Assembly: GCF_014489495.1 (NCBI RefSeq) | Contig: NZ_CP060780.1 | Coordinates: forward strand, 1,933,001-1,997,000 | Length of the DNA stretch: 64,000 nucleotides | From: Sphingomonas daechungensis | GTDB lineage: Bacteria; Pseudomonadota; Alphaproteobacteria; Sphingomonadales; Sphingomonadaceae | Reading direction: 5' to 3' | Shown: positions 1 through 64,000 of the stretch, one piece after another | How positions within the stretch are numbered: the first letter of the stretch is position 1 | Layout: the number at the start of each line of letters is the position of its first letter | Translations under genes and position numbers: made by a program | Notes under the pieces: generated by a model | Told to the model about the DNA's origin: nothing | What the model saw: the letters and a program-made list of their open reading frames with translations, nothing else | Database searches by the model: none

Positions 1-1447
1 CAAGGTTAAGCGCTCGCAGGACCGGCTTCAGTCGCTCGGTTTCTTCCAAGAGAACCTGGAGGTGAAGCAGACGGAAGGCTCGACCCCGACAAGGTCGTCC
101 TTGGCCTCAATGTCGAGGAAAAGTCGACCGGTGAGCTTCAGCTCTCGGCCGGTTATTCGAGCCTCGAGAAGTTCATCCTTTCGTTCTCGATCGCGCAGCG
201 CAACTTCATGGGCAAGGGCCAGGAGCTGAACGCTGGCGTGAACTGGTCGCGCTACTCCAAGTCGATTCAGCTTGGCTTTGTCGAACCGTACTTCCTCGAC
301 AAGAACATTCTGCTGGGCGGCGATATTTTCCGTCGCGATTACAACAGCTTCAACTATGTCGGAATTCCCGGAACACGACGTATTCCCAGACCAGCACGGG
401 TACTGCTTTGCGGCTCGGTTTCCCGCTGACCGAATATATGACGCTGGGTACCCGCTATTCGCTGGTCCAGGACAATATCACGCTGGACGAGAACACGTTT
501 TACACGGACCCGGATCTTGTCGCCGATCCGGACGGAAACGGCCCACTTACGGGTAGCAACGGGCCTCTTCCCCCACAGTGTGACCCCGGAAGGCAGGTCA
601 GTACCTCTGCGACGAGGTGGGCAAGCGCCTGACGTCCGCGATTGGATATTCGCTTGTCTACAACGACACGGACGGCATCCGTCCCACGCGCGGTCAGTCC
701 GTCGTGCTGTCGCAGGACTTCGCCGGGCTAGGCGGTGACGTGAAGTACATCCGCAGCCGACTTACCGGCATCAAATATTGGCAGCTTGGCTTGCTTGGCG
801 GTGGCTGGGTCCTTTCGGCCCGTGCTGAGGGTGGTTACATCCATCCGCTGGAAAAATCCCCTTCAACGGGCAGCGATCCGATCCGGATCACCGACCGCTT
901 CTTCGGCACGCAGCTGCGTGGCTTCGACATCCGCGGCATCGGTCCACGCATCATTCGCGAGCAATATGCGGCGGATGGCACGATCGACACGAGCCAGAAG
1001 AACCAGGTCAGCGACGCCTTGGGCGGCCGCGCATACTACATGGGTCGTATCGAGCTGGAATTCCCGACCAACTCGTCGCTCAAGAGCTTCGGCCTTCGTC
1101 CATCGGCGTTCATCGACGTCGGTTCGGTGTGGAGACTCACGACCCCCGTCACTGAAGACATCATCAAGTTCTGCTACAAGTCGGCGGCCCCTACGCAGGA
1201 AATCCGGCCACCGAGCACGAACCTCGACTGCGCCCAGTTCGGGGCAGGCTACGACAACACCAATTCATCGCCGGGTTTCCGGGAGCGTTACGTTGGCGAT
1301 TCCGCCAGGCCGCGTCTCTCGATCGGTATCGGCGTGAACTGGGTCTCGCCGTTCGGTCCGCTGCGGATCGACATCGCCAAGGCCCTCCTGAAGACAGAGG
1401 GTGACGAAACCAAATTGTTCAGCTTCAACGTAGGAACTCAATTCTAA
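1..1447 (+). CDS. bamA: Outer membrane protein assembly factor BamA (5' truncated, frame-broken)
   Basis: This is the C-terminal part (about 480 residues) of BamA, the Omp85-family barrel that inserts beta-barrel proteins into the outer membrane. The window opens in the last POTRA domain ([14 protein letters not shown]), followed by the barrel, with [18 protein letters not shown] and [11 protein letters not shown] near 120-300. The chain ends at 1447 on an aromatic residue (VGTQF), as expected of a Bam substrate signal. Three frame breaks near 88, 366 and 589 each behave as one missing base; two sit in C runs and one in an A run. Restoring one base at each gives continuous BamA sequence. Its stop overlaps the ompH start (TAATG), the usual bamA-ompH coupling. 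Confidence 0.95.
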
Positions 1448-2026
1448 TGCGCAAAATCGTCTTACTCGCCGCTGCTGCGGCAACCGTTGCCATTCCCGCC
1501 GCTGTCAACGCACAGGCTCGTGGTGGCATTATCATCGTCGACACGGACCAGATCCTGAAGACCTGCACCGCGTGCACGTCGGCAGCTTCGCAGCTTCAGC
1601 AGAAGCAGTCGACGCTCCGCAGCCGTGCACAGACGCTGCAGACGCAGCTGACCACGGAAGGCAAGCCGATCCAGGATGCTTTCCAGGCTCTCAACGGCAA
1701 AAAGCCCGATGCGGCCCTCCAGGCCCGGATCGACGCTTTCCAGACCAAGGAAGCGAACGCCCGCAAGGAGCTCGCGACTTCTGAGCAGCAGCTGCAGTCG
1801 ACTGCCCAAAACGTGCAGCAGCAGATCGCTGGCCGCCTCGTGCAGATCGTCGAGCAGGTTCGCGCCCGCCGCGGTGCTGCACTCGCGGTTTCGAAGGACG
1901 CTACGCTAGCCAATGACCCACTGGGATGTCACCAGCGAGGTTCTGGCCGCTCTCAACAGCGCGCTGCCTTCAGTCAGCGTCACGCCGTTGCCGCAGCAGC
2001 AGCAACAGCAGCCGCAGGGACGCTAA
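1447..2026 (+). CDS. Skp/OmpH family periplasmic chaperone (frame-broken near 1918)
   Basis: This is a small periplasmic chaperone of the OmpH/Skp family that escorts unfolded outer-membrane proteins to BamA. The first ~20 residues form a signal peptide ([14 protein letters not shown]...AQA). A long Gln/Ala/Lys-rich coiled-coil segment follows (about residues 40-130), then a Pro/Gln-rich tail ending PLPQ..QPQGR. As written, the frame continues past 1918 into fabZ and gives a spurious OmpH-FabZ fusion. Dropping into the neighbouring frame after NDP gives [16 protein letters not shown] and a stop at 2024-2026, six bases before fabZ. The break needs two missing bases close together (or one extra). 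Confidence 0.9.
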
Positions 2027-2031
2027 GTCGA

Positions 2032-2499
2032 ATGTCGGAAGGCGCCGCCCTCGGTCCGCTTGATGTGAAGCGGGTGATGGCGGCGCTTCCACATCGCTAC
2101 CCCCTGTTGCTTGTCGATCGGGTCGAGACCCTCGTCCCCGATCAGTCGATCGTCGCAATCAAGGCCGTGACGATAAACGAGCAGTTCTTCCAGGGTCATT
2201 TCCCAGGCCGTCCGATCATGCCGGGCGTCCTCATCGTCGAGGCGATGGCGCAGGCCGCCGGCGTGCTCGCGGTGGAGTCCCTTGGCCTCGCAAACTCCGG
2301 CAAGCTCGTCTACTTCATGGCGATCGACGGCGCAAAGTTTCGCACGCCGGTCGAACCCGGCGTCCTTCTCAAGCTCGAAGTCGAGTTCGTTCAGAAGCGG
2401 TCGTCTGTCTGCAAGTTCGCGGGCAAAGCGACGATCGACGGCAAGCTTGCCGCCGAGGCGAACTTCACGGCGATGATCGCCGATCCGCCTACCGCCTAA
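2032..2499 (+). CDS. fabZ: 3-hydroxyacyl-[acyl-carrier-protein] dehydratase FabZ
   Basis: FabZ dehydrates beta-hydroxyacyl-ACP in fatty acid elongation. The 155-residue hot-dog-fold protein is intact. It has the family opening ([16 protein letters not shown]) and the catalytic segment [21 protein letters not shown] split by the active-site His and Glu. The ATG at 2032 follows the ompH stop by five bases. In enterobacteria lpxD lies between skp and fabZ and lpxA follows; neither is here, and the gene after fabZ is on the opposite strand. The stop overlaps that gene's stop by four bases. Confidence 0.95.
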
Positions 2500-4172: not shown

Positions 4173-4911
4173 CGGATCAGTGAGCGCAGGCGCTCGATCT
4201 CAGGGATTACCAGCGGTCCCATGCACGTCCACCCTCGCCCATCCACTTCGACGCGCCTGGACTTGGCATTGCGGACGATCGGATGGCTGAGCCATGCGGC
4301 ACCTCGTGAGAACTGTCCGCTCCGGTAGCGGCTCTGCACCAGCACGGCAGGCGGACGCACGAGGATGGTTTCGAGCGAGACGCGATCGCCTTGCAAGGGT
4401 CGTTGCTTCAGGCCAGCCAGGCGCATCCAGTCGGCACCCACGCTGGGGACGGCGATGGTCTGCCCAGCGCCGCCGATCCAGATTGCGTCCATCTGACGCG
4501 ACCGAGCGGTGCTCCGCACATAATCCAGTCTCTTCAGCCATGCGCGAGCGCGGCCAGGATCGCCGATTGCGTCCGCTACCGCCCGGAGGTTCCAGGAGAC
4601 GTCTTCAAGCTTGCTGACGGGTCTAAGGTCGACGGCCCTGATGCCAAGGCGGGAGGCGATCAGCGAACTCGCCCGCCCACCGCCCCCATCGAGAGCACAA
4701 CCGCAGGCCTCTTTGCGAGCACATCCTCGAGCGAGCCGCGATTGGCGTGATGACCCTGTGCCAGCTTCCAGAGCGGGGACTCCTGCGGATCCTGCGACAG
4801 GAAGCTGACACTGGCGATCTCCGACGGCTTCGCGAGCAGGAGGAGATATTCGTCCGTGCAGAGGTTGAGGGAAGCGACGCTAACGGCCGCGAGCAAGGCG
4901 GATGCCGCCAT
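4169..4911 (-). CDS. btuF: Periplasmic cobalamin-binding protein, BtuF-like (frame-broken)
   Basis: This is a solute-binding protein of the helical-backbone metal/cobalamin receptor class. The ATG at 4911 follows GGGAGGAGC at good spacing and gives a signal peptide (MAASALLAAVSVASA-type), then the family opening SLNLCTDEYLLLLA. Later come the segment on residues that block receptor function (AKRPAVVLSMG) and a C-terminal half with IGGAGQTIAVPSVGADWM. One break near 4673 separates the halves; the corrected frame reads SSLIASRLGIRAVDLRP. The start lies inside the 3' end of btuB by about 30 bases. Its place between a riboswitch-controlled TonB receptor and a FecCD permease supports B12 as ligand. 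Confidence 0.85.
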
Positions 4912-6722
4912 AAATGCTCCTCCCTTCCGTCCGATACCCGAGCGCATCCTGATAATTCGCGTCGAAGGCGTTGGCGACACGAGTGAACAGCTGCACGCCT
5001 CTCGTGACTTCGAAGCCAAGGCGGGCGCCCGCCAGCCAGTATGAACCCAGCCTCACTCGCTGATAGGGGAAGACATCAAAGTCCGTGTCGATGCGGCTGC
5101 CGACGTAGGCCATCGACGCTCCGTAAGTGAAGCGATCGATCCGTCCGTCTGCGCTGATCGCGCCACTATGTTTCGGTCGCCGCGCCTCGCGGATCCCAGA
5201 GCCGAGGTCGTTCGGTTCACTGGCTCTCACGTACGAATAATTGGCCGAAATTCGCAGTTTCTCTCCCAGTGACCAGTCCGCTTGTGCCTCGATACCGGAG
5301 CGGCGGCTCGCAGTTTTGCGGTTGTCGGTGCTGGAGAGAAACGTACTCGGATCGAAGGTGTCGATGATCTCGTCCTTGAGCCGCTGGCGATAGGCCGTGA
5401 GCGATGCGCCAAAACTGGCCTTGCGGTATCGCAGCGATCCTTCGAATTCGCGTGAATTCTCCGGCTTAAGTGACGGATTTCCAACGAATGAGTTGGGAAA
5501 GAATCCGAAGAGATCGAAGAAGGTTGGTTGGGCGATTCCTTCGCCGTACGAGCCTGCGATGGAGAAGCCACGGCCGACCTTCGCAAGGAGCGAAGCCCGG
5601 ATCGTCGTCGCGTCCTTGAACCGGTTGAAGGCGTCGTGACGGACGGCGAGATCAGCCGAAATCGGTCCTGCGTCCGCGCGCCATTCGCCTGTCAATGACG
5701 AGTGCTTCCGGCTCTGGTCCTGGTCCGTCGCACCCCCGAAGTTGATGTCTCGCGCCTTGAAATCTTCGGTCTCGTGATCCGCCGCCAGGATGAAGCGATG
5801 GTCGACATCCCCTGTGCGGAAGCGATGCTGGACCTGCGCATCTAGAGCGGATCGTGTCCCCGACGTCCGGTTGAGCTCGATATCATCGAGGGAGTTGCGA
5901 TTGCGGGAGGAGAGGAACGAACCGCCGACACGGCCGCTCCAGGATGCGTCCGCCTCCCCGATTTCAGTCCATAAGCGAGCAGCGCTGAGGCGGTTTCGGC
6001 TGCTGTCGAATGTATCCGTATGCTGGAAAGGCGGGTTGGGATTGTACCCATCGAACTCGCTTCGCCCGAAAGGCTGAACGCAGCGGCGCCGAGTTTCACG
6101 CCCGGCCCGAGCGTCCAGCTCCCCCTGACGCGAGCGGACAGATTTCGGTATCCGTCCTTGTCGCCGTTGCCGTCGAAGGCGTCGATGCCGCTCGCTTTTT
6201 GCCAACCAATGCCAGCCGAAAGGTCTCCCTGCTCGCTGGCGATCGAGCCGGACGCCGAGCCCCGAAGGAAACCGAAGGACCCGCCTTCAAATCCGACCGC
6301 GTAGGAACTGCCTCGCGCGGCAAGGCCGTTGACGGCGACGACACCTCCAACTGCCTCGGAACCCCAAAGCGCCGATTGCGGCCCTCGCACCACCTCGATC
6401 CTCGAAGCGAGATCGGAGTTCAGCAGCTCGAACCGCGGCTGGTTCCCGGTCGCGGGATCGTTGGCACGAATGCCGTCGACGAAGAGTAGGGTGTGGTTAT
6501 TCTCCGAGCCACGAATCCGCACCTCGGTCAGGGAGCCGGCAGGGCCCGACGTCGACACGGAAACAGATGGAGTCAACCTGAGTAAGCTGGGATCAGCGGG
6601 TCACCAAGCCGCTCAATGGTGCGACCATCGATAATGCTGACGCTCGCGGGCGTGTCGGCGGCCTGTTCGGGTGCTCTTTCTGCGGTGATTACGATTTCGG
6701 TGCTTGGAACTGCGTCGATCAC
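4880..6722 (-). CDS. btuB: TonB-dependent vitamin B12 receptor, BtuB-like (frame-broken; no signal peptide visible)
   Basis: This outer-membrane barrel is of the BtuB type, about 610 residues. The TonB box region EIVITAERAPEQ lies near residue 10. The plug carries TEVRIRGSENNHTLLFVDGI, IEVVRGPQSALWGSEAVGGVV, and the barrel shows typical alternating strands, with a final VANAFDANYQDALGY and a short C-terminus. Frame breaks lie near 6590 and 6035. The best start is GTG at 6722, five bases after a perfect AAGGAGG, but it begins almost directly at the TonB box with no signal peptide. An ATG at 6727 abuts the RBS and hits a stop two codons later. Either bases are missing here or the N-terminus is really unusual. 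Confidence 0.88.
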
Positions 6723-6811
6723 TTCATCCTCCTTTGACGAACGTGTCGTCGCAGAGGATGCGAAGCACCCACGCCCTACGGCTGGTCCCGGCCGGAGAAA
6801 CGGACGACGGA

Positions 6812-6930
6812 CCAAGGCAAGTGTCTGACTCCCGTCCATTGGACGGACACAGTTGCGGGCACAGCGCCGGCTTCGTACCGGCTTCCTTCTTGGCCAGCGG
6901 CCGTAGCCGCCGGACCTCGATCCGCAGGTG
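6812..6930 (-). promoter_or_regulatory. Cobalamin (AdoCbl) riboswitch upstream of btuB
   Basis: On the minus strand the conserved cobalamin-aptamer core is plain. GGAAGCCGGTACGAAGCCGG is followed by the B12 box ending GCCCGCAACTGT (6849-6860), and the 3' element GTCAGACACTTGCC lies at 6816-6829. The AGGT element at about 6915 marks the 5' part. This class binds adenosylcobalamin and shuts off B12 uptake genes when the ligand is plentiful. About 90 bases lie between the aptamer and the btuB RBS, enough for an expression platform that hides AAGGAGG; I could not settle its fold by eye. Edges are approximate. Confidence 0.92.
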
Positions 6931-6931
6931 G

Positions 6932-6960
6932 GACTACGAGGGGGAGCCGAGCCTTGTCAA
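6932..6960 (-). promoter_or_regulatory. Candidate sigma70-type promoter for the B12 uptake operon
   Basis: A perfect -35 hexamer TTGACA lies at 6955-6960 on the minus strand, with a weak -10 (GTAGTC, 6932-6937) 17 bases downstream. This would place the transcript start around 6925, just at the 5' edge of the cobalamin aptamer, which is the main reason to believe it. Confidence 0.5.
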
Positions 6961-7269: not shown

Positions 7270-7272
7270 GCC

Positions 7273-18030: not shown

Positions 18031-19203
18031 ATGAAACGCGCAGTACTGATTGCTTCCGTCACCGCCCTGACTCTAGCCTCCGGAGCGCCTGCCAAGGCTC
18101 CCCATTCGATACGCCCGCCAGGGTTGCCTATCTGATCGACCTGACTTCGGGGGCGGTCTTGCTTTCGAAGAATGCTGACGTCCGGATGCCGCCCGCGTCG
18201 ATGGCCAAGATGATGACCACCAACGTCGCCTTCGAGCTGATCAAGAAGGGCGACCTCAAGACTGACAAGAAGTGCACGGTCCGCCCGGAGACGTGGCAGA
18301 AATGGCATGGCCGCAAGCCGGCTCGACCATGTTCCTCAGTCCGAACGAGCAGGTGTCGGTCGACGAGTTGCTGAAAGGGATCATCACCTTGTCGGGCAAC
18401 GACGCTTCGGTCGTGCTCGCAGAGTGCATCGCGGGGACGGAGGAAGCCTTCGCCAACGTCATGAACGAGAATGCAAAGCGGCTGGGGCTGACGAATAGCC
18501 ATTTTGGCAATTCGAACGGCTGGCCGGACGAGGGCCGGACCTACGTCACCGCTCGAGACCTGGCTACTCTGGCCCGAGCGGAGATCGAGAACTACCCGAT
18601 CTCTATAAGAAATATTACAGCCTTACCGAGTACACGCACGGGCAGACGCTGGGGTCGGGCGCCGCGATCACTCAGGCCAACCGCAACCCTTTGCTCGGCC
18701 GTGTCCCGGGCGCTGATGGACTGAAGACCGGCCATACCGAGGAGGCAGGCTATGGCTTCACCGGTTCTGCGGAGCAGAACGGACGCCGCCTGATCATGGT
18801 CGTGGCGGGTCTCGACAGCTTCAATCAGCGGATCACGGAGTCGGTTCGGCTGATGCAGTGGGGCTTCAACGCCTGGCAGTCGAAGCCCTTGTTCAAAGCC
18901 GGCGCAAGCATCGGATCCGCGAAGGTCCAACTGGGCAGCAGTAGCGAAGTCCCGCTGGTGGCGCCGCGTGACCTGGCCGTGACGATCCCGGCGGGAGTGC
19001 TCTCCAAGACCGGAGCGATGAAGATCCGCTACCAGGGACCGGTCAAGGCTCCGATTGCCAAGGGGCAGCACATTGCCGATCTGGTCGTGGCCATGCCAGA
19101 TGGAGAGCAGGTGATGCCGCTCGTCGCCGGAGAAGCCGTTGGCGAAGCGGGCTTTTTCGGTCGCGCGTGGATCGGCCTCAAGCAGCTGTTCGGCATGGCG
19201 TGA
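18031..19203 (+). CDS. dacC: D-alanyl-D-alanine carboxypeptidase, PBP5/6 (DacC) type (frame-broken)
   Basis: This peptidase S11 low-molecular-mass penicillin-binding protein trims the terminal D-Ala from peptidoglycan stems in the periplasm. It has a signal peptide (MKRAVLIASVTALTLASGAPAKA) and the active-site tetrad ASMAKMM (SxxK), SGND (SxN) and DGLKTGHTEEAGYG (KTG). A C-terminal PBP5_C beta domain follows, ending in an amphipathic membrane-anchoring helix FFGRAWIGLKQLFGMA. Three single-base losses near 18100, 18315 and 18605 break it. The stop overlaps the tmk start as GTGA. Confidence 0.93.
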
Positions 19204-19826
19204 GCGACGGACCGCGCTTCATCACGCTCGAAGGCGGAGAGGGCGTCGGCAAGTCGACCCAGCTGAAGGCCCTTCATGCCGCGCTGGCGGAAAGGGGCCT
19301 GCACTGCGCTATTACGCGCGAGCCGGGAGGCAGCGAGGGCGCCGAAGCGATCCGCGCTCTCGTACTCAGCGGCGACGACTCCCGTTGGTCCTCAGAGGCC
19401 GAAGCCCTGCTGTTCGCCGCTGCGCGTGCGGATCATGTCGAAAAAACGATCCGACCGGCGCTGGAGCAGGGCCACTGGGTGCTCAGCGATCGCTTTCTGG
19501 ACTCGTCGCTTGCATATCAAGGCGGTGCGCTCGGTCTCGGAGTAGAGCGCGTTCGTGAACTTTACCGCTTCGCGTGTGGCGACTTCCTGCCGGACAGGAC
19601 GCTCGTTCTGGTCCTCGATGAGGGTGCGGAGCGAGCCAGAGCCCGCGACACTGAAGGTTCTGATCGGATCGGTGGACGCTCCGACGCCTTCCATAGGGCG
19701 GTGGACGTCGCATTCCGTCAGATCGCCGCTCAAGAACCCGATCGCGTGCGACTAATCGACGCTTCAGGAACGCCACAGGACGTTACGGCGCGTCTTCTCG
19801 ACAATCTCGCGGACCTGCTGCCATGA
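19200..19826 (+). CDS. tmk: Thymidylate kinase
   Basis: This intact 208-residue enzyme phosphorylates dTMP to dTDP. It has a P-loop LEGGEGVGKSTQ, the DR(Y/F) motif SDRFLDSSLAYQG and a LID region with several arginines (ERARARDTEGSDRIGGR). The GTG at 19200 is chosen because it overlaps the upstream stop (GTGA) and puts the P-loop about ten residues in. Its stop overlaps the holB ATG by four bases. Confidence 0.95.
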   Translation: MSDGPRFITLEGGEGVGKSTQLKALHAALAERGLHCAITREPGGSEGAEAIRALVLSGDDSRWSSEAEALLFAAARADHVEKTIRPALEQGHWVLSDRFLDSSLAYQGGALGLGVERVRELYRFACGDFLPDRTLVLVLDEGAERARARDTEGSDRIGGRSDAFHRAVDVAFRQIAAQEPDRVRLIDASGTPQDVTARLLDNLADLLP

Positions 19827-20792
19827 TCTTCGGACAGGACCGAGCCGTTGAGCAATTCACCGCAGCGCGGCAGAGTGGTGCTCTTCACCATGCATGGCTT
19901 CTTTCGGGTCCAAAGGGCGTTGGAAAGGCAAGCTTTGCGAGGCTGGCGGCAACCCGCTTGCTCTCAGAGGCCGCAGGCCCTGCCTTCTCTGCCGCTGGCC
20001 TCGAGACTCCGGAAGATCATCGGATCGCCAAGCTGGTCGAAGCCGGAAGCCATCCCGACCTGCGCTGGCTGGAGCGGCTTACCAACGAAAAGACCGGTAA
20101 TCTCGCTCGGAATATCAGCGTCGACCAGGTTCGCGCGCTCGGCGAACTGTTCGACCTGACGCCGCGCTGTCGCCTTGGCGCGCAGTGGTCATCGATTCGA
20201 TCGACGACCTCGAAAAATCCGCCGCCAACGCTCTTCTCAAGATGCTGGAGGAGCCGCCGGCGAATACCATTTTCTTCCTGGTCACGCATGCACCGGGGAG
20301 ATTGCTACCGACGATCCGGTCTCGTTGCCGGCGGCTCGACTTCCAGCCGCTGGACGATGACGCCATGACGTCGATCCTGGCGAAGGCCCTGCCGATGCAA
20401 AAGGATTTCGAGAGGACGCGCGTCATCTCGGCGGCCGCAGGCTCCGCTGGAAGGGCTTTGGCACTGGCTGAGCTCGACCTCATTTCCCTGGAGGACAAGG
20501 CGCTTCGCATTCTCCGCCAGGGCGATCCGACCAACGGCCGACGATCCGACCTGGCGACGGAACTCGGCAAACGCGGCGCAGGCGACCGCTACGCAGCCTT
20601 CCTTGAGATCCTGCCGTCCGTCATCGCCCGCGAAGCCCGTTCGCTGAGCGGCGCCCCAGGCAAAGGGCAGTGGATGCCTATTCTCGCACCCGCGAGCTGG
20701 TGGCGATCGCTCCCCGCCTATCGCTCGATCCCGCGGCAACGGTGTTCCAGCTAGGGGGAATTCTCGCTTCGGTTGCCGACCCGCTTCCTTGA
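19823..20792 (+). CDS. holB: DNA polymerase III subunit delta' (frame-broken)
   Basis: This is the AAA+ clamp-loader subunit, about 320 residues, opening IFGQDRAVEQF and HAWLLSGPKGVGKASFAR (Walker A). The sensor/arginine-finger region lies around SIDDLEKSAANALLKMLEEPP and HAPGRLLPTIRSRCRRLDF, classic delta'. Breaks near 20165 and 20670 are single missing bases; the corrected C-terminus (ELVAIAPRLSLDPAATVFQL) stops at 20792. The tmk-holB-metG-tatD order is shared by many alphaproteobacteria. Confidence 0.92.
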
Positions 20793-20824: not shown

Positions 20825-22318
20825 ATGTCCGAACCTTTCTACATCACCACCGCGATCAGCTACCCGAACGGGCCGCCGCACATCGGCCATGCCTATGAGG
20901 CCATCGCGGCTGACGTGATCGCACGCTTCCGGCGATCTCAGGGATGCGACGTCCGGTTCCAGACAGGAACGGACGAGCATGGGCTCAAGATGGCCCAGGC
21001 GGCCCGTGCGGAGAATATCGAGCCTCGTGGCCTTGCGGACAGAATGTCGCGTCTTTTCCAGGAGATGTGCGACACGCTTAATGTCTCGTACGATCGTTTC
21101 ATTCGCACCTCCCAGCCCGACCATTACCGCGCAAGCCAGGCGATCTGGAAAGCAATGGAGGAGAGGGGGACCTCTATCTCGATCGCTACGAAGGTTGGTA
21201 CTCGGTCCGCGACGAGGCCTACTACGAGGAAGACGAGCTCATCATCGGCGAAGGCGGCGAGAAGCTGTCACCGCAGGGAACTCCGGTCGAATGGACTGTC
21301 GAAGAGAGTTGGTTCTTTCGGCTGTCGAAATATCAGCAGCCGTTGCTCGACCTCTACGCGTCAAACCCCGAGTTCATCCAGCCGGACACCCGGCGCAACG
21401 AGATCGTCCGCTTCGTCGAAGGCGGCCTGAAGGATCTCAGCATCTCGCGCACCAGCTTCGACTGGGGTGTCCCGGTGCCGGGCAGCGACAACCATGTGAT
21501 GTACGTCTGGCTGGACGCGCTGACGAACTACATCACCGGGCTTGGCTATCCCGACGAGACTGAACTGTGGGAGCGCTACTGGCCCGCGAACGTCCACCTG
21601 ATCGGGAAGGACGTGGTCCGCTTCCACGCCGTCTATTGGCCGGCGTTCCTGATGTCGGCGGGGATTGCGTTGCCGAAGATGGTCTACGGTCACGGCTTTC
21701 TGCTGATCCGCGGCGAGAAGATGTCGAAGAGCGTCGGCAATGTCGTCGACCCCTTGCGCTCGCGCGGGCTTTGGCGTCGACCAGTTGCGCTACTTCCTCA
21801 TGCGCGAAGTCACCTTCGGTCAGGACGGGAGCTACAGCGCCGAAGCAATCGTCAACCGCGTGAACGCCGAGCTCGCGAACAGTTTCGGCAATCTGGCGCA
21901 GCGCACTTTATCGATGGTCTTCAAGAACTTGAATGGAGTACTTCCTGCTGCAGGGGAACTCGCAGAAGATATCGATCTACTTCGTAAGGTTGATCAGGCC
22001 TGTGCGGATCTCAATGCGCGATTTGACGAGTATGCTTTCTCGGCGGGGTTAGAGGCCTGGATGGGCGCGGTCTTCGCCTGCAATGCCTATGTGGACGCAC
22101 AGGCGCCGTGGGCGCTTCGCAAGACCGACGCGAACCGCATGGCAGCCGTGCTCGGCACGCTGGTGAGCGCCGTGCGGCAACTCGCTGAAGCTGTTGCACC
22201 AGTGATACCGTCCGCGTCGGCTGCGTTACTGAGCCAGATCGCGGAGGGGGACGACGGCAACCCGATTGCGCAGCCCCAACCTCTGTTCCCGCGGCTGGAA
22301 CTGGAAGACGAGGCGTGA
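20825..22318 (+). CDS. metG: Methionyl-tRNA synthetase (frame-broken)
   Basis: This class I synthetase, about 500 residues, charges tRNA-Met. It opens [20 protein letters not shown] (HIGH motif), has [14 protein letters not shown] and the second signature [14 protein letters not shown] (KMSKS), and an anticodon-binding helical domain at the C-terminus ([21 protein letters not shown]). There is no CxxC zinc knuckle between the signatures, so this is the zinc-free short form, and no C-terminal dimerisation domain. Three single-base losses lie near 21172, 21750 and 21770. The stop overlaps the tatD GTG start. Confidence 0.94.
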
Positions 22319-32404: not shown

Positions 32405-33545
32405 ATGTCCGTCACTGCCCTCATCGTCGCCGCCGGGAAGGGCGAACGCCTCGGCGGCGAGGTTCCTAAGCAATATCAGAGCTTGGGGGCCGCCCGGTCC
32501 TTCGTTGGGCGGTGGAGGCCCTCATCAGGCATCCGTCGATCGATCAGGTCCGGGTAGTTATCGGGGAAGGCCAGGACGGTCACGCCCGCGAGGCGCTAGA
32601 CGGGCTTGCTGTCGGCGATCTGATCATAGGAGGTGCGGAGCGTTCAAATAGCGTGCTCAACGGTCTGCATGCGATCGGCGAAGGCGCTGTGCTGGTTCAC
32701 GATGCCGCCCGACCCTTCTGCCCACCTGAGGTCGTCGAACGGCTGTTGGCGGCGCTTGAACAGGCGGATGGCTCGGTTCCGGTTCTCCCGGTCGCCGACA
32801 CTCTCGCCTCAGGCGGCCAGTTTCTCGAGGCGCCGGTTGACCGACGAAACCTGTTCCGCGTGCAGACCCCCAGGCCTTCCACGTGGAGGACCTGATACAT
32901 GCGTACCAAGAAGCAGGCGGAGCTTCGGCGACGGACGAATCGACGGTAATGCTGTCCGCAGGGCTGAAAGTCGCTACGGTTGAGGGCGATCCGATGCTTG
33001 AGAAGCTCACCATGCGCGCAGATTGGGAACGAGCGGAAGCCATTCTCGCATCGCGACTGGTGTCACGAACCGGTATGGGGTTCGACGTCCACGCCTTCGC
33101 GGGTGAGGGACCAATCATGTTGGGCGGTATCCCCGTCCCGCATTTGCGCGGTCTGTCGGGCCACAGCGACGCGGACGTCGCCCTTCACGCCATCACCGAC
33201 GCCCTGCTCGGCGCGGCCGGCCTGGGTGACATTGGCGAGCACTTCCCGCCGTCCGATCCGCAGTGGAAGGGCGCATCATCCGATCTGTTCCTGAAGCACG
33301 CGGCGACGTTGATCAGAGACCAGGGCGGGCTAATCGATCACGTTGACGTCACCATCGTCGCCGAGGAGCCAAAGATCGGACCCCATCGTTCCGCGATCCG
33401 GGCACGTATCGCGGAGATCCTGCAGATGGCCATCGAACAGGTGAGCGTGAAGGCGACGACCACAGAGGGACTCGGCTTCACCGGGCGCCGCGAGGGCATG
33501 GCTGCGCAGGCCGTGGCAAGCATCCGTCTAGGCTTTATTCGGTGA
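32405..33545 (+). CDS. ispDF: Bifunctional IspD/IspF enzyme of the MEP isoprenoid pathway (frame-broken)
   Basis: This is a fusion of 2-C-methyl-D-erythritol 4-phosphate cytidylyltransferase and 2,4-cyclodiphosphate synthase. The IspD half (residues ~1-220) has [29 protein letters not shown] and the ESTVML segment. The IspF half has [20 protein letters not shown] (metal Asp/His), [31 protein letters not shown] and [13 protein letters not shown]. Breaks near 32490 (a G run) and 32872 are single missing bases. The fusion is common in alphaproteobacteria. IspE, acting between the two steps, lies at 55954-56759. The gene is divergent from dusB. Confidence 0.94.
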
Positions 33546-34467: not shown

Positions 34468-35383
34468 CAGCCGTTCGCTCGCTCCAGTTGGGCGTTGCGG
34501 GCGTCCTGCAATTTCTTGAAGTCGTCTCCCGCGTGATAGCTCGACCGCGTGAGAGGCGAGGCTGCAACGAGAAGGAACCCCTTGGCCCGGGCGATCGCCG
34601 AGTAGGCGTCGAACGCTTGCGGAGTGACAAACTCCTCGACTTTCGCGTGCTTGGGCGTCGGCTGCAAATACTGCCCCATGGTCAGGAAATCGACGCCCGC
34701 AGAGCGCATGTCGTCCATGACCTGATGCACTTCGAGCCGCTGCTCGCCAAGCCCGACCATCACGCCCGACTTGGTGAAGATATGCGGCGCCTTGCGCTTC
34801 ACGCTCTCCAGCAGCCGTAATGACGCGTAATAGCGGGCCCCGGGCGGATCGTCGGATAGAGCCTCGGGACGGTCTCGAGATTGTGGTTGTAAACATCCGG
34901 GCCAGCCTCGACGATCGCGTCGACAGCCGCCTCGCTCTTGTTGCGGAAGTCCGGCGTCAGGATTTCGATGGTCGTTTGCGGCGTCCGCTTCCGGAGCGCC
35001 TGGATCACCTTCACGAACTGCGAAGCACCGCCGTCGGGAAGGTCATCGCGATCGACCGATGTCACGACGATATGCTCGAGGCCGAGCTCGGCGGCCGCGA
35101 TCGCGACATGCTCGGGCTCCAGCGGGTCGACCGCTCGCGGCATCCCGGTCTTCACGTTGCAGAAGGCGCAAGCCCGCGTGCAGGTATCGCCGAGAATCAT
35201 CACGGTGGCGTGCTTCTTGGTCCAGCACTCGCCGATGTTCGGACAGGCCGCTTCCTCGCACACGGTCGCAAGGCCGAGATCGCGCATCAGCCGGCGCGTC
35301 GAATGATAAGCTGGACTTGTCGGCGCCTTGACGCGGATCCAGTCTGGCTTGCGCTGTCGAAGGACCGGTGCGGGATCGTTCAT
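34467..35383 (-). CDS. lipA: Lipoyl synthase (frame-broken near 34840)
   Basis: This radical SAM enzyme inserts two sulfurs into octanoyl-protein. It has the auxiliary-cluster cysteines in [13 protein letters not shown] and the radical SAM CxxxCxxC in [15 protein letters not shown], then [28 protein letters not shown] and MVGLGE, with the conserved RSSYHA (Ser ligand) near the C-terminus. One missing base near 34840 breaks the frame in a C/G run. Uses Fe-S clusters that the desulfurases further along the window could help supply. Confidence 0.95.
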
Positions 35384-35448
35384 GCTGGCCAGATAGCGAT
35401 TGGTCCCGCCGCTTGCCACCCCCGCCCTGCACCGGCTAGCGGGCACCG

Positions 35449-42975: not shown

Positions 42976-44602
42976 TCAGGCGCCTTTCGTAGTAGTAAAG
43001 GATTCCAGCGTCGCATCCGGGAACGCTTCGAACGCAGCTCGCACGGCCGGATCAGCGAGCACTTCCGACCGAACGCGCTCCTCGGCCATTTTCTCCCGGT
43101 CATGCAAGGACGGCTCTCCGGCCTCGTCCGAGAGCGAGACCTGCCATGCCTTGCCAGTTGCCTCCTTGAGCGCGGCGGCAAGGTCACGCGGCCAGTCCGT
43201 CCCAAGCGGCCGCATCGGCTTCAGGACGAGTTCCGGGGGAGCGAAGCGCACGAGGCCGACTTGGTCGTGGAGCTGTACTGCGAGCTGATGCTTCCCGCGT
43301 GCTTCGAGCAGCGCGACTAGGCCCGGCAAATCTGACGGAACTTGCGCAGTGATTCCGCTCGGTTTCGCCTGCGAAGTGGGTATTACCGGCGATCCAGCCG
43401 CCTCCCCGAGAGGCGGGAGAGGACGCTGGCCGGGTCAGGAAGATCAGCCGCGTGAATCAGGCGAAGGAGCGCCATCATCGCCGCCTCACGCGGGTCAGGC
43501 GCGACCTGGACATCGGCAAGGCCCTTCAGGAGCATCTGCCAGACACGATGGATCTGCGCCCAGCCGAGCTGGTTGGCGAGTCTCTCGGCTGCTTCGCGTT
43601 GCTCTGCGGGAAGAGCTTCGGGGCTTGCGCCCGCCTTTGTGCGGGTCGCGAGGTGAAGCTCCTCCATCAGCCCACGGACGAGAGACGCCGGGTCGATACC
43701 GAGGTCATGCGCTTCGTCGAGATCGGCGAGCGTGGCACCGGCATCACCTGTAAGGACGTGCTCCAGCAGCCGCCGAATGCGTCCCCGATCAGCTAGGCCG
43801 AGCATGTCCCGGACCTGTTCCGCGGTAACGGTGCCGCCGCCATGTGCAATCGCCTGGTCGAGGATGGACAGGCCATCGCGTGCCGAGCCCTCGGCCGCGC
43901 GCGCGATCATCCGAAGGGCATCGTCCTCGACAGTAACGCCTTCCGCCTTGGACACCTCCGCAAAGTGAGCCGCGAGCTTCTCAGCAGGAATGCGACGGAG
44001 GTCGAAGCGCTGCGTTCGCGACAGGACCGTTAGCGGCACCTTGTCGACCTCGGTCGTAGCGAACAGGAATTTCACATGCTCAGGCGGTTCCTCAAGAGTC
44101 TTCAACAACGCGTTGAAGGCGTTCTTGGAAAGCATGTGGACTTCGTCGATGATGTAGATCTTGTAGCGCGCATTGACCGAGGCATAACGGACCGCGTCGA
44201 TGATCTCACGGACATCGTCCACACCGGTGTGTGACGCGGCGTCCATTTCGATCACATCAATGTGTCGCCCTTCGGCAATCGCCTTGCACTGTTCACATAC
44301 GCCGCACGGATTGATCGTCGGACCGCCGAGCCCATCGGTGCCGACGCAGTTGAGCGCCTTCGCAACAAGACGCGCCGTTGAGGTCTTCCCCACTCCGCGA
44401 ACGCCGGTAAGCAGGAACGCGTGCGCGATCCGGCCGCGCTCGATCGCGTTGGCGAGGGTTTGCACCATCGCATCCTGGCCGATCAGCTCGGAGAAATTCT
44501 GAGGACGATACTTCCGCGCCAGCACGCGATACGGGATCCGGGAGCCGTTTTGGGCACCTCAGGCAAGTCTAGGCCGAGGCCAAGCGATTCGGGTTCGTCC
44601 AT
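42976..44602 (-). CDS. dnaX: DNA polymerase III subunits gamma/tau (frame-broken)
   Basis: This is the clamp-loader ATPase, about 540 residues. After a ~30-residue N-terminal extension (ATG at 44602) comes YRVLARKYRPQNFSELIGQ, Walker A LTGVRGVGKTSTARL, the zinc cysteines in PCGVCEQCKAI, YIIDEVHMLSKNAFNALLKTLEEPP (Walker B) and LSRTQRFDLRRI (sensor 1 region). The tau-specific C-terminal region ends at 42976. Breaks are near 44540 and 43405, each a missing base. The one at 43405 falls at the start of the tau tail, where some bacteria use programmed -1 shifting to make gamma, but there is no A-run slippery site here, so I treat it like the others. Confidence 0.93.
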
Positions 44603-45582: not shown

Positions 45583-45918
45583 CTAGCCGTAAAGCCAATT
45601 CTTCGACCCCGCCGGGATGCGGACGTCGAGAGTCTCCATATCCTCGGTCAGGATGATCTGGCAGGCGAGCCGCGACGTTCGCGTCGCGTGCGCCGCAAGA
45701 TCGAGGAGATCTTCCTCCTCGTCGCTCGCTCGCAGAAGCTTCTCGAAGTCGGCTTTGTCGACGATCACATGGCAGGTCGAACAGGCCATCACACCCTCGC
45801 ACGCGCCCTCCAGAGGTTGTTTGGCTGCCCAGGCAATGTCGAGCAGGCGCTGTCCCGGCTTGGCCTCGACTTCCTTGTCCAGCGTGCCGTCTGGCTTGTG
45901 AAAGCGGATCTTGATCAT
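45583..45918 (-). CDS. fdx: Adrenodoxin-type [2Fe-2S] ferredoxin
   Basis: This intact 111-residue ferredoxin has cluster cysteines in GACEGVMACSTCHV and a fourth in SRLACQIILTED, the vertebrate-type (adrenodoxin-like) pattern used in Fe-S assembly and P450 electron transfer. The start overlaps the upstream desulfurase stop as ATGA, so a role as reductant in Fe-S biogenesis is likely. Confidence 0.93.
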   Translation of the reverse strand: MIKIRFHKPDGTLDKEVEAKPGQRLLDIAWAAKQPLEGACEGVMACSTCHVIVDKADFEKLLRASDEEEDLLDLAAHATRTSRLACQIILTEDMETLDVRIPAGSKNWLYG

Positions 45919-47024
45919 GCAGCGAGCCCTTGCTGGGCGCGGGCTGCCGCATCGATGCGGTTCAAAGCCTCGATAATTTCTTCTGCGGATGTGTATCGCC
46001 CGAACCCGAGCCGGATTGACGAGCGGGCATCACGATCGCTGAGCCCGATTGCCCGAAGCACATGGCTCGGCCGGCCGGAACCGCTGGCGCAGGCACTCCC
46101 GAGAGAGAAAGCGATTTCGCGCTCGTCCGCGATGATCCGGGCCACGTCCACGTCCGGCAAACACAGGTTGAGGTTGCCGTGGTAGCGCCGAGTCATGCTT
46201 CCGTTGACGGTCCAGTCGGGTAGCGTTGACGAAGCTGCGGTGTTCCACAGTCGCTCGACGTGATCTTGATCGGCTTGCCGCCGTTCCGAAGCTAGCTTGG
46301 CCGCTGCGCCAAACCCTACGCACAGTGCGGGCGAGAGCGTTCCCGACCGGATGCCGAGTTCTTGGCCCCGCCGTGGATGAGCGGCGCCGGCTCGGCACCC
46401 TGCCTCATCCATAGCGCTCCAATGCCCTTCGGACCGTGGATCTTGTGAGCCGAGACCGCGACGAGGTCCGGACCTTCGGGAATATCGACGCGGCCAAGCC
46501 CTGAACCGCGTCGCAGAGCATCAACGCCCCGAACTCGTGCGCAAGTCTCGAAATTTCTCCGATGGGTTGAATGACGCCAATCTCGTTGTTGACGAGCATG
46601 ACGGCGACAATCGCCACGTTCTCATCCACGGCGGCTTTGACGTCGTCCAGATCGAGCAACCCTTCCGAACCGACCGGAAGCCTCGTGACGTCATAGCCCT
46701 GCCTTCCAGCCACTCGCAGGTATCCAGCACCGCCGCATGCTCGGTGGCAACGGTGACAATGCGGTTTCGCCCTCCGCGCGCCCTAGCGTGCCCTTGAGCG
46801 CCCAGTTTAGAGCCTCCGTCGCGCCCCCAGTGAAGGCAATCCGTCCACCATGCAGGCCAATCGCCTCGTCGACCTGCTTGCGGGCCACGTCGATCGCTGC
46901 ATCGGCTTCTCGCCCCAGCGCGATGGCGAATGTGGATTGGCAAACTTCTCCTCGATCCACGGCTGCATCGCGTCCGCGACCTCGGGCGCAAGGGGGTGGT
47001 CGCCTGGTAATCGAGGTAGATCAT
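45915..47024 (-). CDS. Cysteine desulfurase (IscS/NifS family), downstream copy (six frame breaks)
   Basis: This PLP enzyme takes sulfur from cysteine. The corrected chain is about 370 residues: [16 protein letters not shown], then [55 protein letters not shown], the PLP-lysine [13 protein letters not shown], and the catalytic-Cys loop [17 protein letters not shown]. At least six single-base losses are needed (near 46990, 46945, 46770, 46700, 46505 and 46375), the densest in the window, so a true pseudogene cannot be excluded, though every motif survives. It overlaps the ferredoxin start; a second desulfurase lies directly upstream. Confidence 0.85.
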
Positions 47025-48095
47025 GCGGCCTTGGAAACTGCTCGTTCGCGAATCCGCAGCCATTCGCTGAGAAATCGGTCGACCTCTGCTTCGCCAGTAT
47101 CCGGGCCGAAGCTCACGCGCACGAAGCAGGAGGCGATCTCGGGCGGCAGGCCCATGGCTTCCAGCACCAGGCTGGGCTTCATGCTTCCCGATGAACAGGC
47201 GCTTCCCGCCGACACCGCAATACCGGCAAGATCGAACTGCACCAGCTGCGTTGAGCTAGCGACGCCTGGCATCGCATAAGCTCCGATGATTGAAACCCGC
47301 GAGACGTCCGCACCGATCACGACACCACCCGCAGCGACAATTTCATGTTCAAGCCGCGCTCGCAGGCTCTTCAGCCGCTCCATGTCGTAAGGCCGGGCAG
47401 CGAGAGCCGCAGCAAATCCTGCGGCGCACGGCACATCCTGCGTGCCTCGGCGATAGCCCTTTTCCTGGCCGCCGACTGGCGCCAGCGTTCCGAGATCCTT
47501 GACCAGCAGCACACCAACGCCCGGCGGACCGCCGAGCTTGTGGGCGCACGCAGCGATGAAATCGGCATCCGGCAGCGGGATCTTGCCGGCCCTTGAGCGC
47601 AATCCGCAAGCAGAAGCGATCCCGCAGCACGAATGCGTGGCGCCAGTCGTTCCAGCGGCTGAATGATCCCGGTCTCGTTATTGACCTGCTGAATGGCGAT
47701 CAGCGTCCGCCCTTCGGCGAGGATTGCATCGAGCGCCTCTTCGTCAATCAGGCCGTTCGATTGAACCGGGATGACCTTTGAGCCCGTGCCCATGGAATGA
47801 GGCACGATGGCATGCTCAGTCGCGCCATGGGCTCTGTTCGGCACTCGCGCCCGCCTCGCGGCGATTTCCACAGCCTCACTAGCGCCGGACGTCAGAATGG
47901 TCTCACCGCGCCAGCCAAGCACATCGGCAATCGTCCGGCGCGCCTTCTCCAACGAAGAACGAGCGGCACGACCCTCAGCATAGGGCGAATTTGGGTTCCC
48001 CAGGTCCTCAGCGCGTCGGCAATTGCCGCCTGCGCTGCCGGGAGCACATGCGTGGTTGCCGCGTGATCGAGGTGGATGCGAGTCTTACGAGTCAA
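47021..48095 (-). CDS. Cysteine desulfurase (IscS/NifS family), upstream copy (frame-broken)
   Basis: This second desulfurase has about 358 residues and diverges from its neighbour. Motifs are RIHLDHAATTHVLPAA, TSGASEAVEIAARRA, EHAIVPHSMG, QQVNNETGIIQPL, LLADCAQ, PLP-lysine in ACAHKLGGPPGVGVLLV, and the Cys loop SAGSACSSGSMKPSLVL. Breaks near 47985 and 47600 are single missing bases (a G and a C run). No ATG fits; a TTG at 48095 is the best start. The stop overlaps the start of the second copy. Divergent alpha/beta hydrolase gene 113 bases away. Confidence 0.88.
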
Positions 48096-51711: not shown

Positions 51712-51829
51712 GGAACCCTCCTCTCCTGCTCGCGTAGGCGGGAATGGGGTGAGGCTGTCCCCCGCTAACAAAACGACATGCCCTTTTCCGATGTCGAGCC
51801 TATAGGCGCGGCAACCATTGGAGCATGAC

Positions 51830-52912
51830 ATGACGACCGACACGCTGAACAAGGTTCAGGATGCCGAGCGCATCAACGACACGCGCAAGGCCGAGCTTCT
51901 CGCGACGCCGATCGAGCACATCGACATCACCAAGTTCGACGCCCGCCCGATCATCGATTCGATGGGCAAGATGAGCTTCACCAGCCGCGATCTTTCGCGC
52001 GCTACGGGCATCTACAACCAGATGCTGGAGGACAAGGACTGCTCGATCATCCTGGTGATTGCGGGCTCGACCTCGGCCGGCGGCTGCATGGATCTCTATG
52101 CCGAACTCGTGAAGTCCAACATGGTCGACGCGATCGTCGCTACCGGCGCCTCGATCGTCGACATGGATTTCTTCGAAGCGCTTGGCCACAAGCACTACCA
52201 AGCCAATGAAATCCCTGACGATGATACGCTGCGGTCGCTTTACATCGACCGCATCTACGACACGTACATCGATGAGCAGCAGCTGCAGGATTGTGACTTC
52301 ACGATCGGCAAGATCGCCGACAGCCTGGAGCCGCGCGCCTACTCCAGCCGCGCCTTCATCCGCGAGATGGGCAAGTGGCTGAGCGAGGGTAACGCCAAGA
52401 AGCAGGGCAGCCTCGTCCAGCTCGCCTACGAGCATGACGTGCCGATCTTCTGCCCGGCGTTCGTGGACAGCTCAGCCGGGTTCGGCCTCGTGAAGCATCA
52501 GGTCGACGCGATGAAGCGGGGCGGCCACTACATGGTGCTCGACGCCATCGCCGACTTCCGTGAACTCACCGACATCAAGATCAAGGCGGGCACTACCGGC
52601 CTGCTGATGATCGGCGGCGGCGTTCCGAAGAACTTCACGCAGGACACCGTCGTTTGCGCCGAGATCCTCGGCCATGACGACGTCGAGGTCCACAAATATG
52701 CCGTGCAGATCACCGTCGCTGACGTCCGCGATGGCGCGTGCTCCTCCTCGACGCTTCAGGAAGCGGCGAGCTGGGGCAAGGTCTCGACCGCGATGGAGCA
52801 GATGGTGTTTGCCGAGGCGACCAGCGTCCTTCCGCTCCTGGCGTCGGACGCCTGGCACCGTGGCGCGTGGCGCAACCGCGAGAAGCGCCGCTTCGCCAAG
52901 CTCTTCGACTAA
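51830..52912 (+). CDS. Deoxyhypusine synthase-like protein, putative homospermidine synthase
   Basis: This intact 360-residue member of the deoxyhypusine synthase family transfers an aminobutyl group from spermidine or putrescine in an NAD-dependent reaction through an enzyme-imine lysine. The NAD/polyamine region is IAGSTSAGGCMDLYAELVK...VATGASIVDMDFFEALG; GGHYMVLDAIADF and IGGGVPKNFTQDT follow, and the catalytic lysine lies in EAASWGKVST at residue 317. Bacteria lack eIF5A, the eukaryotic substrate. With an ODC directly upstream and sym-homospermidine typical of sphingomonads, homospermidine synthesis is the best inference. The ATG at 51830 has GGAG six bases ahead. Confidence 0.88.
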   Translation: MTTDTLNKVQDAERINDTRKAELLATPIEHIDITKFDARPIIDSMGKMSFTSRDLSRATGIYNQMLEDKDCSIILVIAGSTSAGGCMDLYAELVKSNMVDAIVATGASIVDMDFFEALGHKHYQANEIPDDDTLRSLYIDRIYDTYIDEQQLQDCDFTIGKIADSLEPRAYSSRAFIREMGKWLSEGNAKKQGSLVQLAYEHDVPIFCPAFVDSSAGFGLVKHQVDAMKRGGHYMVLDAIADFRELTDIKIKAGTTGLLMIGGGVPKNFTQDTVVCAEILGHDDVEVHKYAVQITVADVRDGACSSSTLQEAASWGKVSTAMEQMVFAEATSVLPLLASDAWHRGAWRNREKRRFAKLFD

Positions 52913-52940: not shown

Positions 52941-52968
52941 GCCTCCCTGGAAACAGGGGAGGCTTTTT
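52941..52968 (+). terminator. Rho-independent terminator after the polyamine genes
   Basis: GCCTCCCTG, a GAAA loop, then CAGGGGAGGC and TTTTT, 28 bases after the stop. The 3' arm has one base more than the 5' arm; an extra C in the C run would make a perfect 10-bp stem, which matches the kind of base loss seen in the genes. It ends just before the MAPEG gene. Confidence 0.85.
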
Positions 52969-55942: not shown

Positions 55943-55953
55943 CCTGCGCGCGC

Positions 55954-58401: not shown

Positions 58402-58402
58402 C

Positions 58403-62697: not shown

Positions 62698-62742
62698 GTC
62701 TTTGTTCTTGTTTCGTTCTGGCGTGCGGCGTAATTTCGCGAC

Positions 62743-63813
62743 ATGCCAATCGAGTCGATCAAGGGGCGCGGAGCGACGCGCAATCCAATCCCGACGCGCT
62801 TCAATCTCCAGAAGCGGCTGACGGAAGGAGAATGGCTGGATTCGGTTGAGGCGTTAGACGGCGTGCCGAAGCGACGGACGACGGTCACGATCGAACATCC
62901 CAAGTCTATCCTGAACCGCAACAAGTCGCCCGACATCGGTTTCGACCGATCGGTCAACGCCTATCGGGGCTGCGAGCACGGCTGCATCTACTGCTTCGCG
63001 AGGCCGACGCACGCCTTTCACGACCTCTCGCCTGGCGTAGATTTCGAATCCCGGCTGTTCGCCAAGCCCAATGCAGCGCAGCTTCTTCATGCGGCCTTGT
63101 CGCGGTCCGGATACGACTGCGCTCCAATCGCGATGGGGACGAACACCGACCCCTATCAGCCAATCGAGGAACGATGGCGAATCACCCGAGCGCTCATCGA
63201 GTTGCTGGTCGAGACGCGGCACCCCTTCTCCATCACTACCAAGTCCGACCGGGTGCTGCGGGACCTGGACCTGCTGAAGCCCGCGGGTGAGCTTGGGATC
63301 GTGTCCGTGGCGCTGTCCGTGACGTCACTCGACCCAAAGACGGCTCGGGCGCTGGAGCCGAGGGCCCCCGCTCCACACCGGCGCGTTGCCGCGATCAAGG
63401 CGCTCAACGATGCGGGCGTTCCTTGCCACATCGCCATCGCCCCGGTCGTGCCCCAGATCACCGACCACGAGATGGAAGCTCTAGTCGAGGCCGGAGCGAA
63501 GGCCGGAGCTCGCGGCGGCTTCTACCTCCCGGTCCGTCTCCCCCACGAGGTGGCACCCCTCTTCCGTGCTTGGCTCGACGAGCATTTTCCCGACCGTGCA
63601 GGGAAGGTCATGGCAACCATCCAGTCCCTTCGCGGAGGACGGGACAACGATCCCAATTTCTTCAGCCGAATGCAGGGTCAGGGTCCATGGGCCGATCTCC
63701 TGCGGACGCGCTTCGAGAAAGCCGCGAAGAAATACGGCCTGCCGCAGTCCAGGTTCGGGCTCCGGCGCGACCTTTTCCAACCACCGCAGGGCAATCAACT
63801 GAGGCTGCTTTGA
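62743..63813 (+). CDS. PA0069-family radical SAM protein
   Basis: This intact 356-residue radical SAM protein is of the PA0069/SplB-like group. It has the cluster motif GCEHGCIYCFARPTH (CxxxCxxC) after a typical ~60-residue N-terminal extension (SIKGRGATRNPIPTRF), then MGTNTDPYQPIEERWRITR and APVVPQITDHEM. C-terminal part: FFSRMQGQGPWADLLRTRF. Its substrate has not been determined; relatives repair thymine spore photoproduct, which is not expected here. Confidence 0.9.
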   Translation: MPIESIKGRGATRNPIPTRFNLQKRLTEGEWLDSVEALDGVPKRRTTVTIEHPKSILNRNKSPDIGFDRSVNAYRGCEHGCIYCFARPTHAFHDLSPGVDFESRLFAKPNAAQLLHAALSRSGYDCAPIAMGTNTDPYQPIEERWRITRALIELLVETRHPFSITTKSDRVLRDLDLLKPAGELGIVSVALSVTSLDPKTARALEPRAPAPHRRVAAIKALNDAGVPCHIAIAPVVPQITDHEMEALVEAGAKAGARGGFYLPVRLPHEVAPLFRAWLDEHFPDRAGKVMATIQSLRGGRDNDPNFFSRMQGQGPWADLLRTRFEKAAKKYGLPQSRFGLRRDLFQPPQGNQLRLL

Positions 63814-63876
63814 TGGATTTGGGCGCGCTTTTTATCGAACGCCGGGGTGACTTCGCCCGGCTCCCTGCCCTACGCA

Positions 63877-64000
63877 ATGCCCATGCGTAATCCGTTCATT
63901 GCCGCGCTTCTGCTCGCGACTGCCGCTCCAGCTTTGTCTCAGGCTGTGCCTCCCCAAGTCTCCGGCCTCCGCGATGCCGCGTTGAAGGACGACTATGCCT
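63877..64000 (+). CDS. Exported peptidase, probably M28 family (3' truncated by window end)
   Basis: The first ~41 residues of a gene cut by the window edge: ATG 63877 gives a signal peptide (MRNPFIAALLLATAAPALSQ) followed by VSGLRDAALKDDYA. The last stretch matches the opening of exported M28/M20-type metallopeptidases in sphingomonads, from memory; with so little sequence the family call is tentative. Confidence 0.55.
   Translation, partial: MPMRNPFIAALLLATAAPALSQAVPPQVSGLRDAALKDDYA

What the first reader, a model, noticed from the sequence alone, without database searches (positions are those of the whole stretch)
1..64000. About sixty single-base losses: a homopolymer-undercall assembly, not gene decay
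Nearly every broken gene is rescued by adding one base, nearly always in the same direction (a reading-frame move of -1). Many sites are G or C runs of about five (C run at 88, 589, 7690, 9733; G run at 24455 and 32490; also 47985). While reading I noticed no G or C run of six or more in the whole window. Essential genes (bamA, metG, holB, dnaX, dacC, ispDF, lipA) are hit as often as others, and coding motifs continue past each break. The terminator at 52941-52968 shows the same one-base asymmetry. This fits systematic read errors (long-read or flow-based sequencing) and should be fixed before any functional reading.
Basis: partly seen in the sequence, partly recalled or inferred. Interest (0 to 1): 0.75.

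Follow-up and report, generated by a model that had tools for sequence, protein, structure and literature searches.

The report
Sequencing error, not gene decay
The dozens of broken genes in this stretch of an environmental Sphingomonas genome are almost certainly sequencing mistakes, in which a base was dropped from runs of G or C, so they say nothing about the living organism.

Summary
The window is from a Sphingomonas assembly (2 contigs, 3.01 Mb, completeness 86.6%). Frame-aware alignment with proteins of seven relatives gives 43 single-base losses and no single-base gain, each seen by at least 4 relatives, over 56 kb. bamA adds three. Twelve relatives tested the same way show 0-2 losses each.

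The losses favour G/C runs. The estimated chance of loss rises with true run length: 0.02%, 0.5%, 8%, 35% and 100% for 2 to 6 bases. Flanking bases do not matter. The one 23S rRNA gene found, far outside the window, lacks single bases at 7 places where five other alphaproteobacteria have one; decay of reading frames cannot explain that. Third codon positions stay the variable ones after breaks.

Two other assemblies of the group show a weaker form: S. sediminicola NZ_CP060782, and G062, which was picked only for low completeness. All three need polishing before any pseudogene or fusion claim. No raw reads were available, so the platform (probably unpolished nanopore) is inferred.

The parts
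1..64000 (.). Whole window: 43 single-base losses seen by at least 4 relatives over 56 kb with an orthologue, plus 3 in bamA; no single-base gain at that support
1..1444 (+). 3' half of bamA, three breaks (about 85, 363, 584)
   Evidence: alignment; BamA family match of the orthologue and of window piece 617-1447
1447..2499 (+). One open frame joining two neighbouring genes (an upstream gene plus fabZ) across a frame change near 1916; likely a false fusion
   Evidence: (net -2 in 4 relatives, at only 43-49% identity)
4889..6719 (-). BtuB-like TonB-dependent receptor, 2 breaks
18031..19200 (+). DacA/DacC-type D-Ala-D-Ala carboxypeptidase, 3 breaks
19823..20789 (+). holB (DNA polymerase III delta'), 2 breaks
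20825..22309 (+). metG, 2 breaks (the second not a simple -1 step)
32476..33545 (+). ispD/ispF, breaks near 32476-32490 and 32868
34470..35419 (-). lipA, 1 break
42979..44531 (-). dnaX (gamma/tau), break near 43400; a second call near 44540 lies at or before the gene start and may reflect an over-extended start in the relatives
45918..47063 (-). IscS/NifS-like cysteine desulfurase with 6 breaks, the most in any listed gene; codon-position constraint intact
52941..52968 (+). Terminator-like hairpin whose arms differ by one base of a C/G run
   Evidence: sequence printed

Best explanation
The breaks are consensus sequencing errors. The assembly under-calls the length of G and C runs by one base, with a probability that climbs steeply with run length. 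Shown here: the direction, the run association, the length dependence, losses in a non-coding rRNA gene, preserved coding constraint after breaks, and near absence of the pattern in 12 relatives. Inferred: the platform is a long-read one (probably nanopore, not polished with accurate reads), and the low completeness estimate of 86.6% is a consequence.
For: Direction: 43 of -1, 0 of +1, 4 other, each seen by 4 or more of 7 relatives. Controls by the same test: losses 0, 0, 0, 0, 0, 0, 1, 0, 2, 0, 0, 0 in G032, G028, G061, G030, G058, G069, G047, G038, G007, G012, G010, G004; one gain, in G038; G028, G010 and G004 had only 8, 30 and 34 kb covered; seven of the twelve also supplied the proteins (self-hits left out). 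Run association: 43 of 56 sites touch a G/C run of 3 or more (12.9 expected), 24 of 56 one of 4 or more (2.7 expected). Dose response for G/C, 48 of 56 sites used (3 or more relatives), each given to the longest run it touches: 1/5729, 6/1144, 16/210, 15/43, 6/6 for true length 2, 3, 4, 5, 6; the longest run was A/T at 4 of 48 sites. Anchored runs pooled over relatives, so one window run may count more than once: 2 of 2 fives and 2 of 2 sixes shorter by one, 1 of 54 fours. 23S rRNA: 7 single-base losses, 6 at G/C runs, 0 insert columns; the five references show 0, 0, 0, 1, 2 losses and 0, 2, 0, 1, 7 insert columns. Codon positions after breaks against S. sediminicola: 13.0%, 8.6%, 47.3% substituted. 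No flank preference, P = 0.28-0.99 in four tests of 39 lost against 259 kept runs. Prediction met: G062, picked for 93% completeness, has 11 losses, 9 of 11 with a G/C run of 4 or more within 6 nt.
Against: 7 of the 43 firm sites have no G/C run of 3 or more within 6 nt, so run length does not explain all; some may be misplaced or another error type. Site density is uneven (2-kb bins, mean 1.50, variance 2.52), with 6 breaks in one desulfurase gene, 2 of which coincide with S. sediminicola's (P = 0.035 when chance is drawn at G/C runs). 4 firm sites are not simple -1 steps. A/T runs of true length 4 are also hit at 2 of 89. No reads were available.
Confidence: 0.97

Rival explanations
1. Real genome decay: the lineage is accumulating frameshift pseudogenes through slippage at G/C runs, as reduced or host-restricted genomes do.
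For: Slippage also acts at runs, and 38 of 55 genes with an orthologue are broken. S. sediminicola, the nearest named relative, also has many breaks (26 of 61 genes).
Against: Slippage is expected to add bases as well as remove them (general knowledge, no call); 43 to 0 was seen. Essential genes are among those hit (metG, holB, dnaX, bamA, lipA). 23S rRNA is hit too. Third codon positions stay about five times more variable than second ones after breaks. In-frame stops are few (10 in 305 aligned pairs, 3.2 per 100 kb; 1.2-7.3 in nine relatives). The genome is not reduced (3.0 Mb against 1.6-3.2 Mb in the genus list).
Confidence: 0.02
2. The organism tolerates or uses the breaks: programmed or compensated frameshifting, or slippery transcription at runs.
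For: Compensation by transcriptional slippage is known for A/T tracts in some reduced symbionts (recalled, no call).
Against: Sites are mostly at G/C runs, seldom A/T (4 of 48). No flanking motif. Twelve relatives have 0-2 losses in the same region. 23S rRNA is not translated yet is affected.
Confidence: 0.005
3. The errors are tied to DNA methylation or another motif rather than to run length.
For: Modified bases can produce systematic nanopore errors (recalled). 7 of 43 firm sites lack a G/C run of 3 or more.
Against: Bases at -2, -1, +1 and +2 of 39 lost runs do not differ from those of 259 kept runs of 4-5, P = 0.28-0.99; the length dose response suffices for most sites. Longer motifs were not searched.
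Confidence: 0.03

Closest known systems
Systematic homopolymer indel errors of nanopore assemblies (Homopolish paper, PMC8011154; passages seen)
   Same: Indels in homopolymers, reading-frame shifts, an excess of false pseudogenes that homologous sequences expose; in one isolate four polishers lowered insertions but raised deletions
   Different: Here the platform is not recorded and the errors are nearly all losses, mostly in G/C runs
Gene-fragmenting errors in long-read assemblies (Kastor paper, PMC12007338; passages seen)
   Same: Deletion errors mostly follow runs of one base; high rate of pseudogenes (23.3% before correction in their example)
   Different: They had reads; their example has substitutions and insertions as well

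Membership tests
Homopolymer under-call of a long-read assembly | Breaks are indels in runs, mostly losses | tested here: met
   43 losses to 0 gains; 43 of 56 sites touch G/C runs of 3 or more, 12.9 expected
Homopolymer under-call of a long-read assembly | Error chance rises with run length | tested here: met
   0.02%, 0.5%, 7.6%, 35%, 100% for true G/C length 2 to 6, 48 of 56 sites used
Homopolymer under-call of a long-read assembly | Not confined to coding sequence or to dispensable genes | tested here: met
   7 losses in the one 23S gene found; essential genes among those hit; rates by essentiality not compared
Homopolymer under-call of a long-read assembly | Absent from accurate assemblies of relatives | tested here: met
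   0-2 losses in each of 12 relatives; 18 and 11 in two further assemblies; how the relatives were sequenced is not known here
Homopolymer under-call of a long-read assembly | Accurate reads of the same strain show longer runs | not testable with these tools
   No reads held
Pseudogene decay | Relaxed constraint after the break | tested here: not met
   Codon positions 1, 2, 3 after breaks: 13.0%, 8.6%, 47.3% substituted against S. sediminicola; before the first break 16.4%, 10.8%, 43.5%
Pseudogene decay | Gains and losses, and stop codons by substitution | tested here: not met
   43 losses to 0 gains; 10 stop events in 305 aligned pairs, within the range of nine relatives

The most novel reading that the evidence does not exclude
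A small part of the breaks is real: the second IscS/NifS-like cysteine desulfurase (45918-47063) is truly inactivated, or read through a frameshift, in the lineage that holds this strain and S. sediminicola, since two of its six break sites coincide in both assemblies.
Probability: 0.03. Interest if true: 0.3.

Novelty: not a real feature. Interest (0 to 1): 0.1.

Why it matters
Anyone annotating this genome as it stands would report false pseudogenes (38 of 55 testable genes in this window look broken), false fusions and damaged essential genes. A weaker form of the fault is in the S. sediminicola KACC 15039 chromosome deposited as complete. Others use an assembly of that strain as a reference (PMC9861922 compares its own isolate with GCA_014489515.1; passages seen; that this accession holds NZ_CP060782 is likely but was not checked). 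Among the 46 genomes of the genus list in at most 10 contigs, three are below 98% completeness: own 86.6%, G049 90%, G062 93%. Own and G062 are affected; so is G021, which matching coordinates suggest is the same record as G049. Low completeness in a nearly closed genome is thus a cheap warning sign.

Tried and rejected
Placing each lost base by pairwise nucleotide alignment failed first with a script error and then gave blurred places because third codon positions differ: of 311 -1 events in the window, 117 were dropped for other gaps and 67 for low identity. It was replaced by protein scores summed over relatives.

A base preference next to lost runs was looked for and not found. Sharing of break sites with S. 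sediminicola looked striking at first (8 of 27, 0.45-0.67 expected). By my reading most of these were gene-end or shadow-frame artefacts with few relatives behind them; with sites seen by 4 or more relatives it fell to 2 of 16. A first-order Markov null for long runs (32 runs of 6 or more expected) was rejected as unfair, since relatives also have few; relatives were used instead. A 23S comparison within the genus was not possible: the search found none in G030, G049 or G021, so 23S genes on plasmid records were used. The platform of NZ_CP060782 was not found: one paper was searched for the words nanopore, MinION and PacBio, none present (listing).

In the gene-level count, the controls' broken genes (3-9 of 51-70 in nine genomes) count any frame step seen by the best-scoring relative alone, gene ends included; the 4-relative count is the cleaner one. 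Alignments under 80% coverage or 70% coverage or under 50% identity were dropped before counting; in the window 305 of 331 passed the stricter filter.

Full report
What it is. The window is contig 1, 1,933,001-1,997,000, of a 3.01-Mb, 2-contig genome with completeness 86.59%. Its nearest named relative in the scan is Sphingomonas sediminicola KACC 15039, NZ_CP060782, collinear over nearly the whole window in four aligned pieces of 72-78% nucleotide identity.

Test of the breaks. I took conserved proteins (found in at least two other relatives) from seven nearly complete relatives (G030, G058, G069, G047, G038, G007, G012; 415 proteins) and aligned them to the window and to other genomes with a frame-aware aligner. 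In the window, 305 of 331 alignments passed the filter (80% coverage, 50% identity). They held 311 single-base losses and 12 gains (100 and 3.9 per 100 kb of aligned codons), 18 two-base losses, 13 two-base gains and 10 stops. Nine relatives had 0.5-8.2 losses and 1.1-4.9 gains per 100 kb, and S. sediminicola 39.7 losses and 3.1 gains. Clustered, 65 window sites have 2 or more relatives behind them, 55 of them net -1. With 4 or more relatives the window has 43 losses, 0 gains and 4 others in 56 kb. In 12 relatives the losses are 0-2 each, with one gain in all; three of the twelve had only 8, 30 and 34 kb covered. S. sediminicola (G021) has 18 losses and G062 has 11. bamA, cut by the window edge, adds three.

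Why at those places. The lost base lies in or next to G/C runs: 43 of 56 placed sites touch a run of 3 or more (12.9 expected from random coding positions), 24 of 56 a run of 4 or more (2.7 expected). Dividing lost by lost plus kept for each true length, with 48 of 56 sites (3 or more relatives) and each site given to the longest run it touches, yields 1/5729, 6/1144, 16/210, 15/43 and 6/6 for G/C runs of 2 to 6. S. sediminicola shows a similar, weaker climb: 0/6863, 1/1352, 11/223, 8/33, 1/2, from 21 of 27 sites. A/T runs carry 4 of the 48 window sites and none of the 21. The flanking bases of lost and kept runs do not differ.

Genome-wide. In 400 kb sampled elsewhere (2,500 bases masked) there are 2.0 six-base G/C runs per 100 kb, against 6.2-21 runs of 6 or more per 100 kb in the 12 controls. 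Open frames of 300 codons or more cover 28-74% of the 20 sampled stretches and 47% of the window, against 69-84% in nine relatives and 65% in S. sediminicola. The 23S gene described next lies about 0.87 Mb from the window. So the fault is not confined to the window.

Why it is not biology. First, the one 23S rRNA gene found lacks single bases at seven places where five other alphaproteobacterial 23S genes all have one; five of the seven have at least 7 of 10 flanking columns identical, and six lie at G/C runs. It has no insert column, while the references have 0, 0, 0, 1, 2 losses and 0, 2, 0, 1, 7 insert columns. Reading frames play no part in rRNA. Second, substitutions against S. sediminicola after the breaks keep the coding pattern: 13.0%, 8.6% and 47.3% at codon positions 1, 2 and 3, against 16.4%, 10.8%, 43.5% before the first break and 8.5%, 4.1%, 41.9% in unbroken genes. 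The worst gene, a cysteine desulfurase with six breaks, keeps it too (55/383, 29/384, 184/377). Third, essential genes are among those broken, though rates by essentiality were not compared. Fourth, a prediction held. Of 46 genomes of the genus list in at most 10 contigs, three fall below 98% completeness: own, G049 and G062. G062 (93%) had not been tested; it showed 11 losses, 9 of them within 6 nt of a G/C run of 4 or more, while G032 and G061, fetched with it as controls, showed none over 71 and 64 kb, and G028 none over 8 kb. G049 was not tested under that name; its coordinates suggest that it is G021.

What stays open. Seven of 43 firm sites have no G/C run of 3 or more within 6 nt, and site density is uneven. 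Two sites in the desulfurase coincide with sites in S. sediminicola (0.31 expected, P = 0.035); a conserved run mis-read twice is the simplest reading. The platform is not known. A 2.88-Mb contig with losses and no firm gains suggests nanopore reads without accurate polishing; two papers describe such errors and the false pseudogenes they cause (PMC8011154, PMC12007338; passages seen).

Runs at breaks now read mostly 3-5 bases, not 'about five'. The firm number of losses is 43 plus 3 in bamA rather than sixty. The absence of long G/C runs is by itself only moderate evidence. Two other assemblies, one of them deposited as a complete chromosome, show the same kind of fault, so comparison with a single 'finished' genome could have misled.

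Noticed in passing
L079-L082 (NZ_CP060782, S. sediminicola KACC 15039, 1138001-1218000): A chromosome deposited as complete shows 18 single-base losses and no gain in 66 kb, with a similar G/C run-length dependence; 26 of 61 genes appear broken.
   Followed up: partly
L109-L112 (G062:C1:975001-1055000): A further single-contig genome of the genus with 11 losses near G/C runs, found by its 93% completeness.
   Followed up: yes
window 1447-2499 +: A single open frame joins an upstream gene (by position perhaps ompH/skp, recalled) to fabZ; a net frame change near 1916 in four relatives, at 43-49% identity, suggests a false fusion made by the errors.
   Followed up: partly
window 45918-48167 -: Two neighbouring IscS/NifS-like cysteine desulfurase genes overlap by about 40 bases; the downstream one has six breaks, two at places also broken in S. 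sediminicola.
   Followed up: partly
window 6799-6934 -: Cobalamin riboswitch just upstream of a BtuB-like receptor gene.
   Followed up: no
window 51780-52909 +: Gene whose G030 orthologue (97% identical protein) matches the deoxyhypusine-synthase-like 1,9-bis(guanidino)-5-aza-nonane synthase family above its cut-off, beside a LysA-like decarboxylase gene.
   Followed up: no
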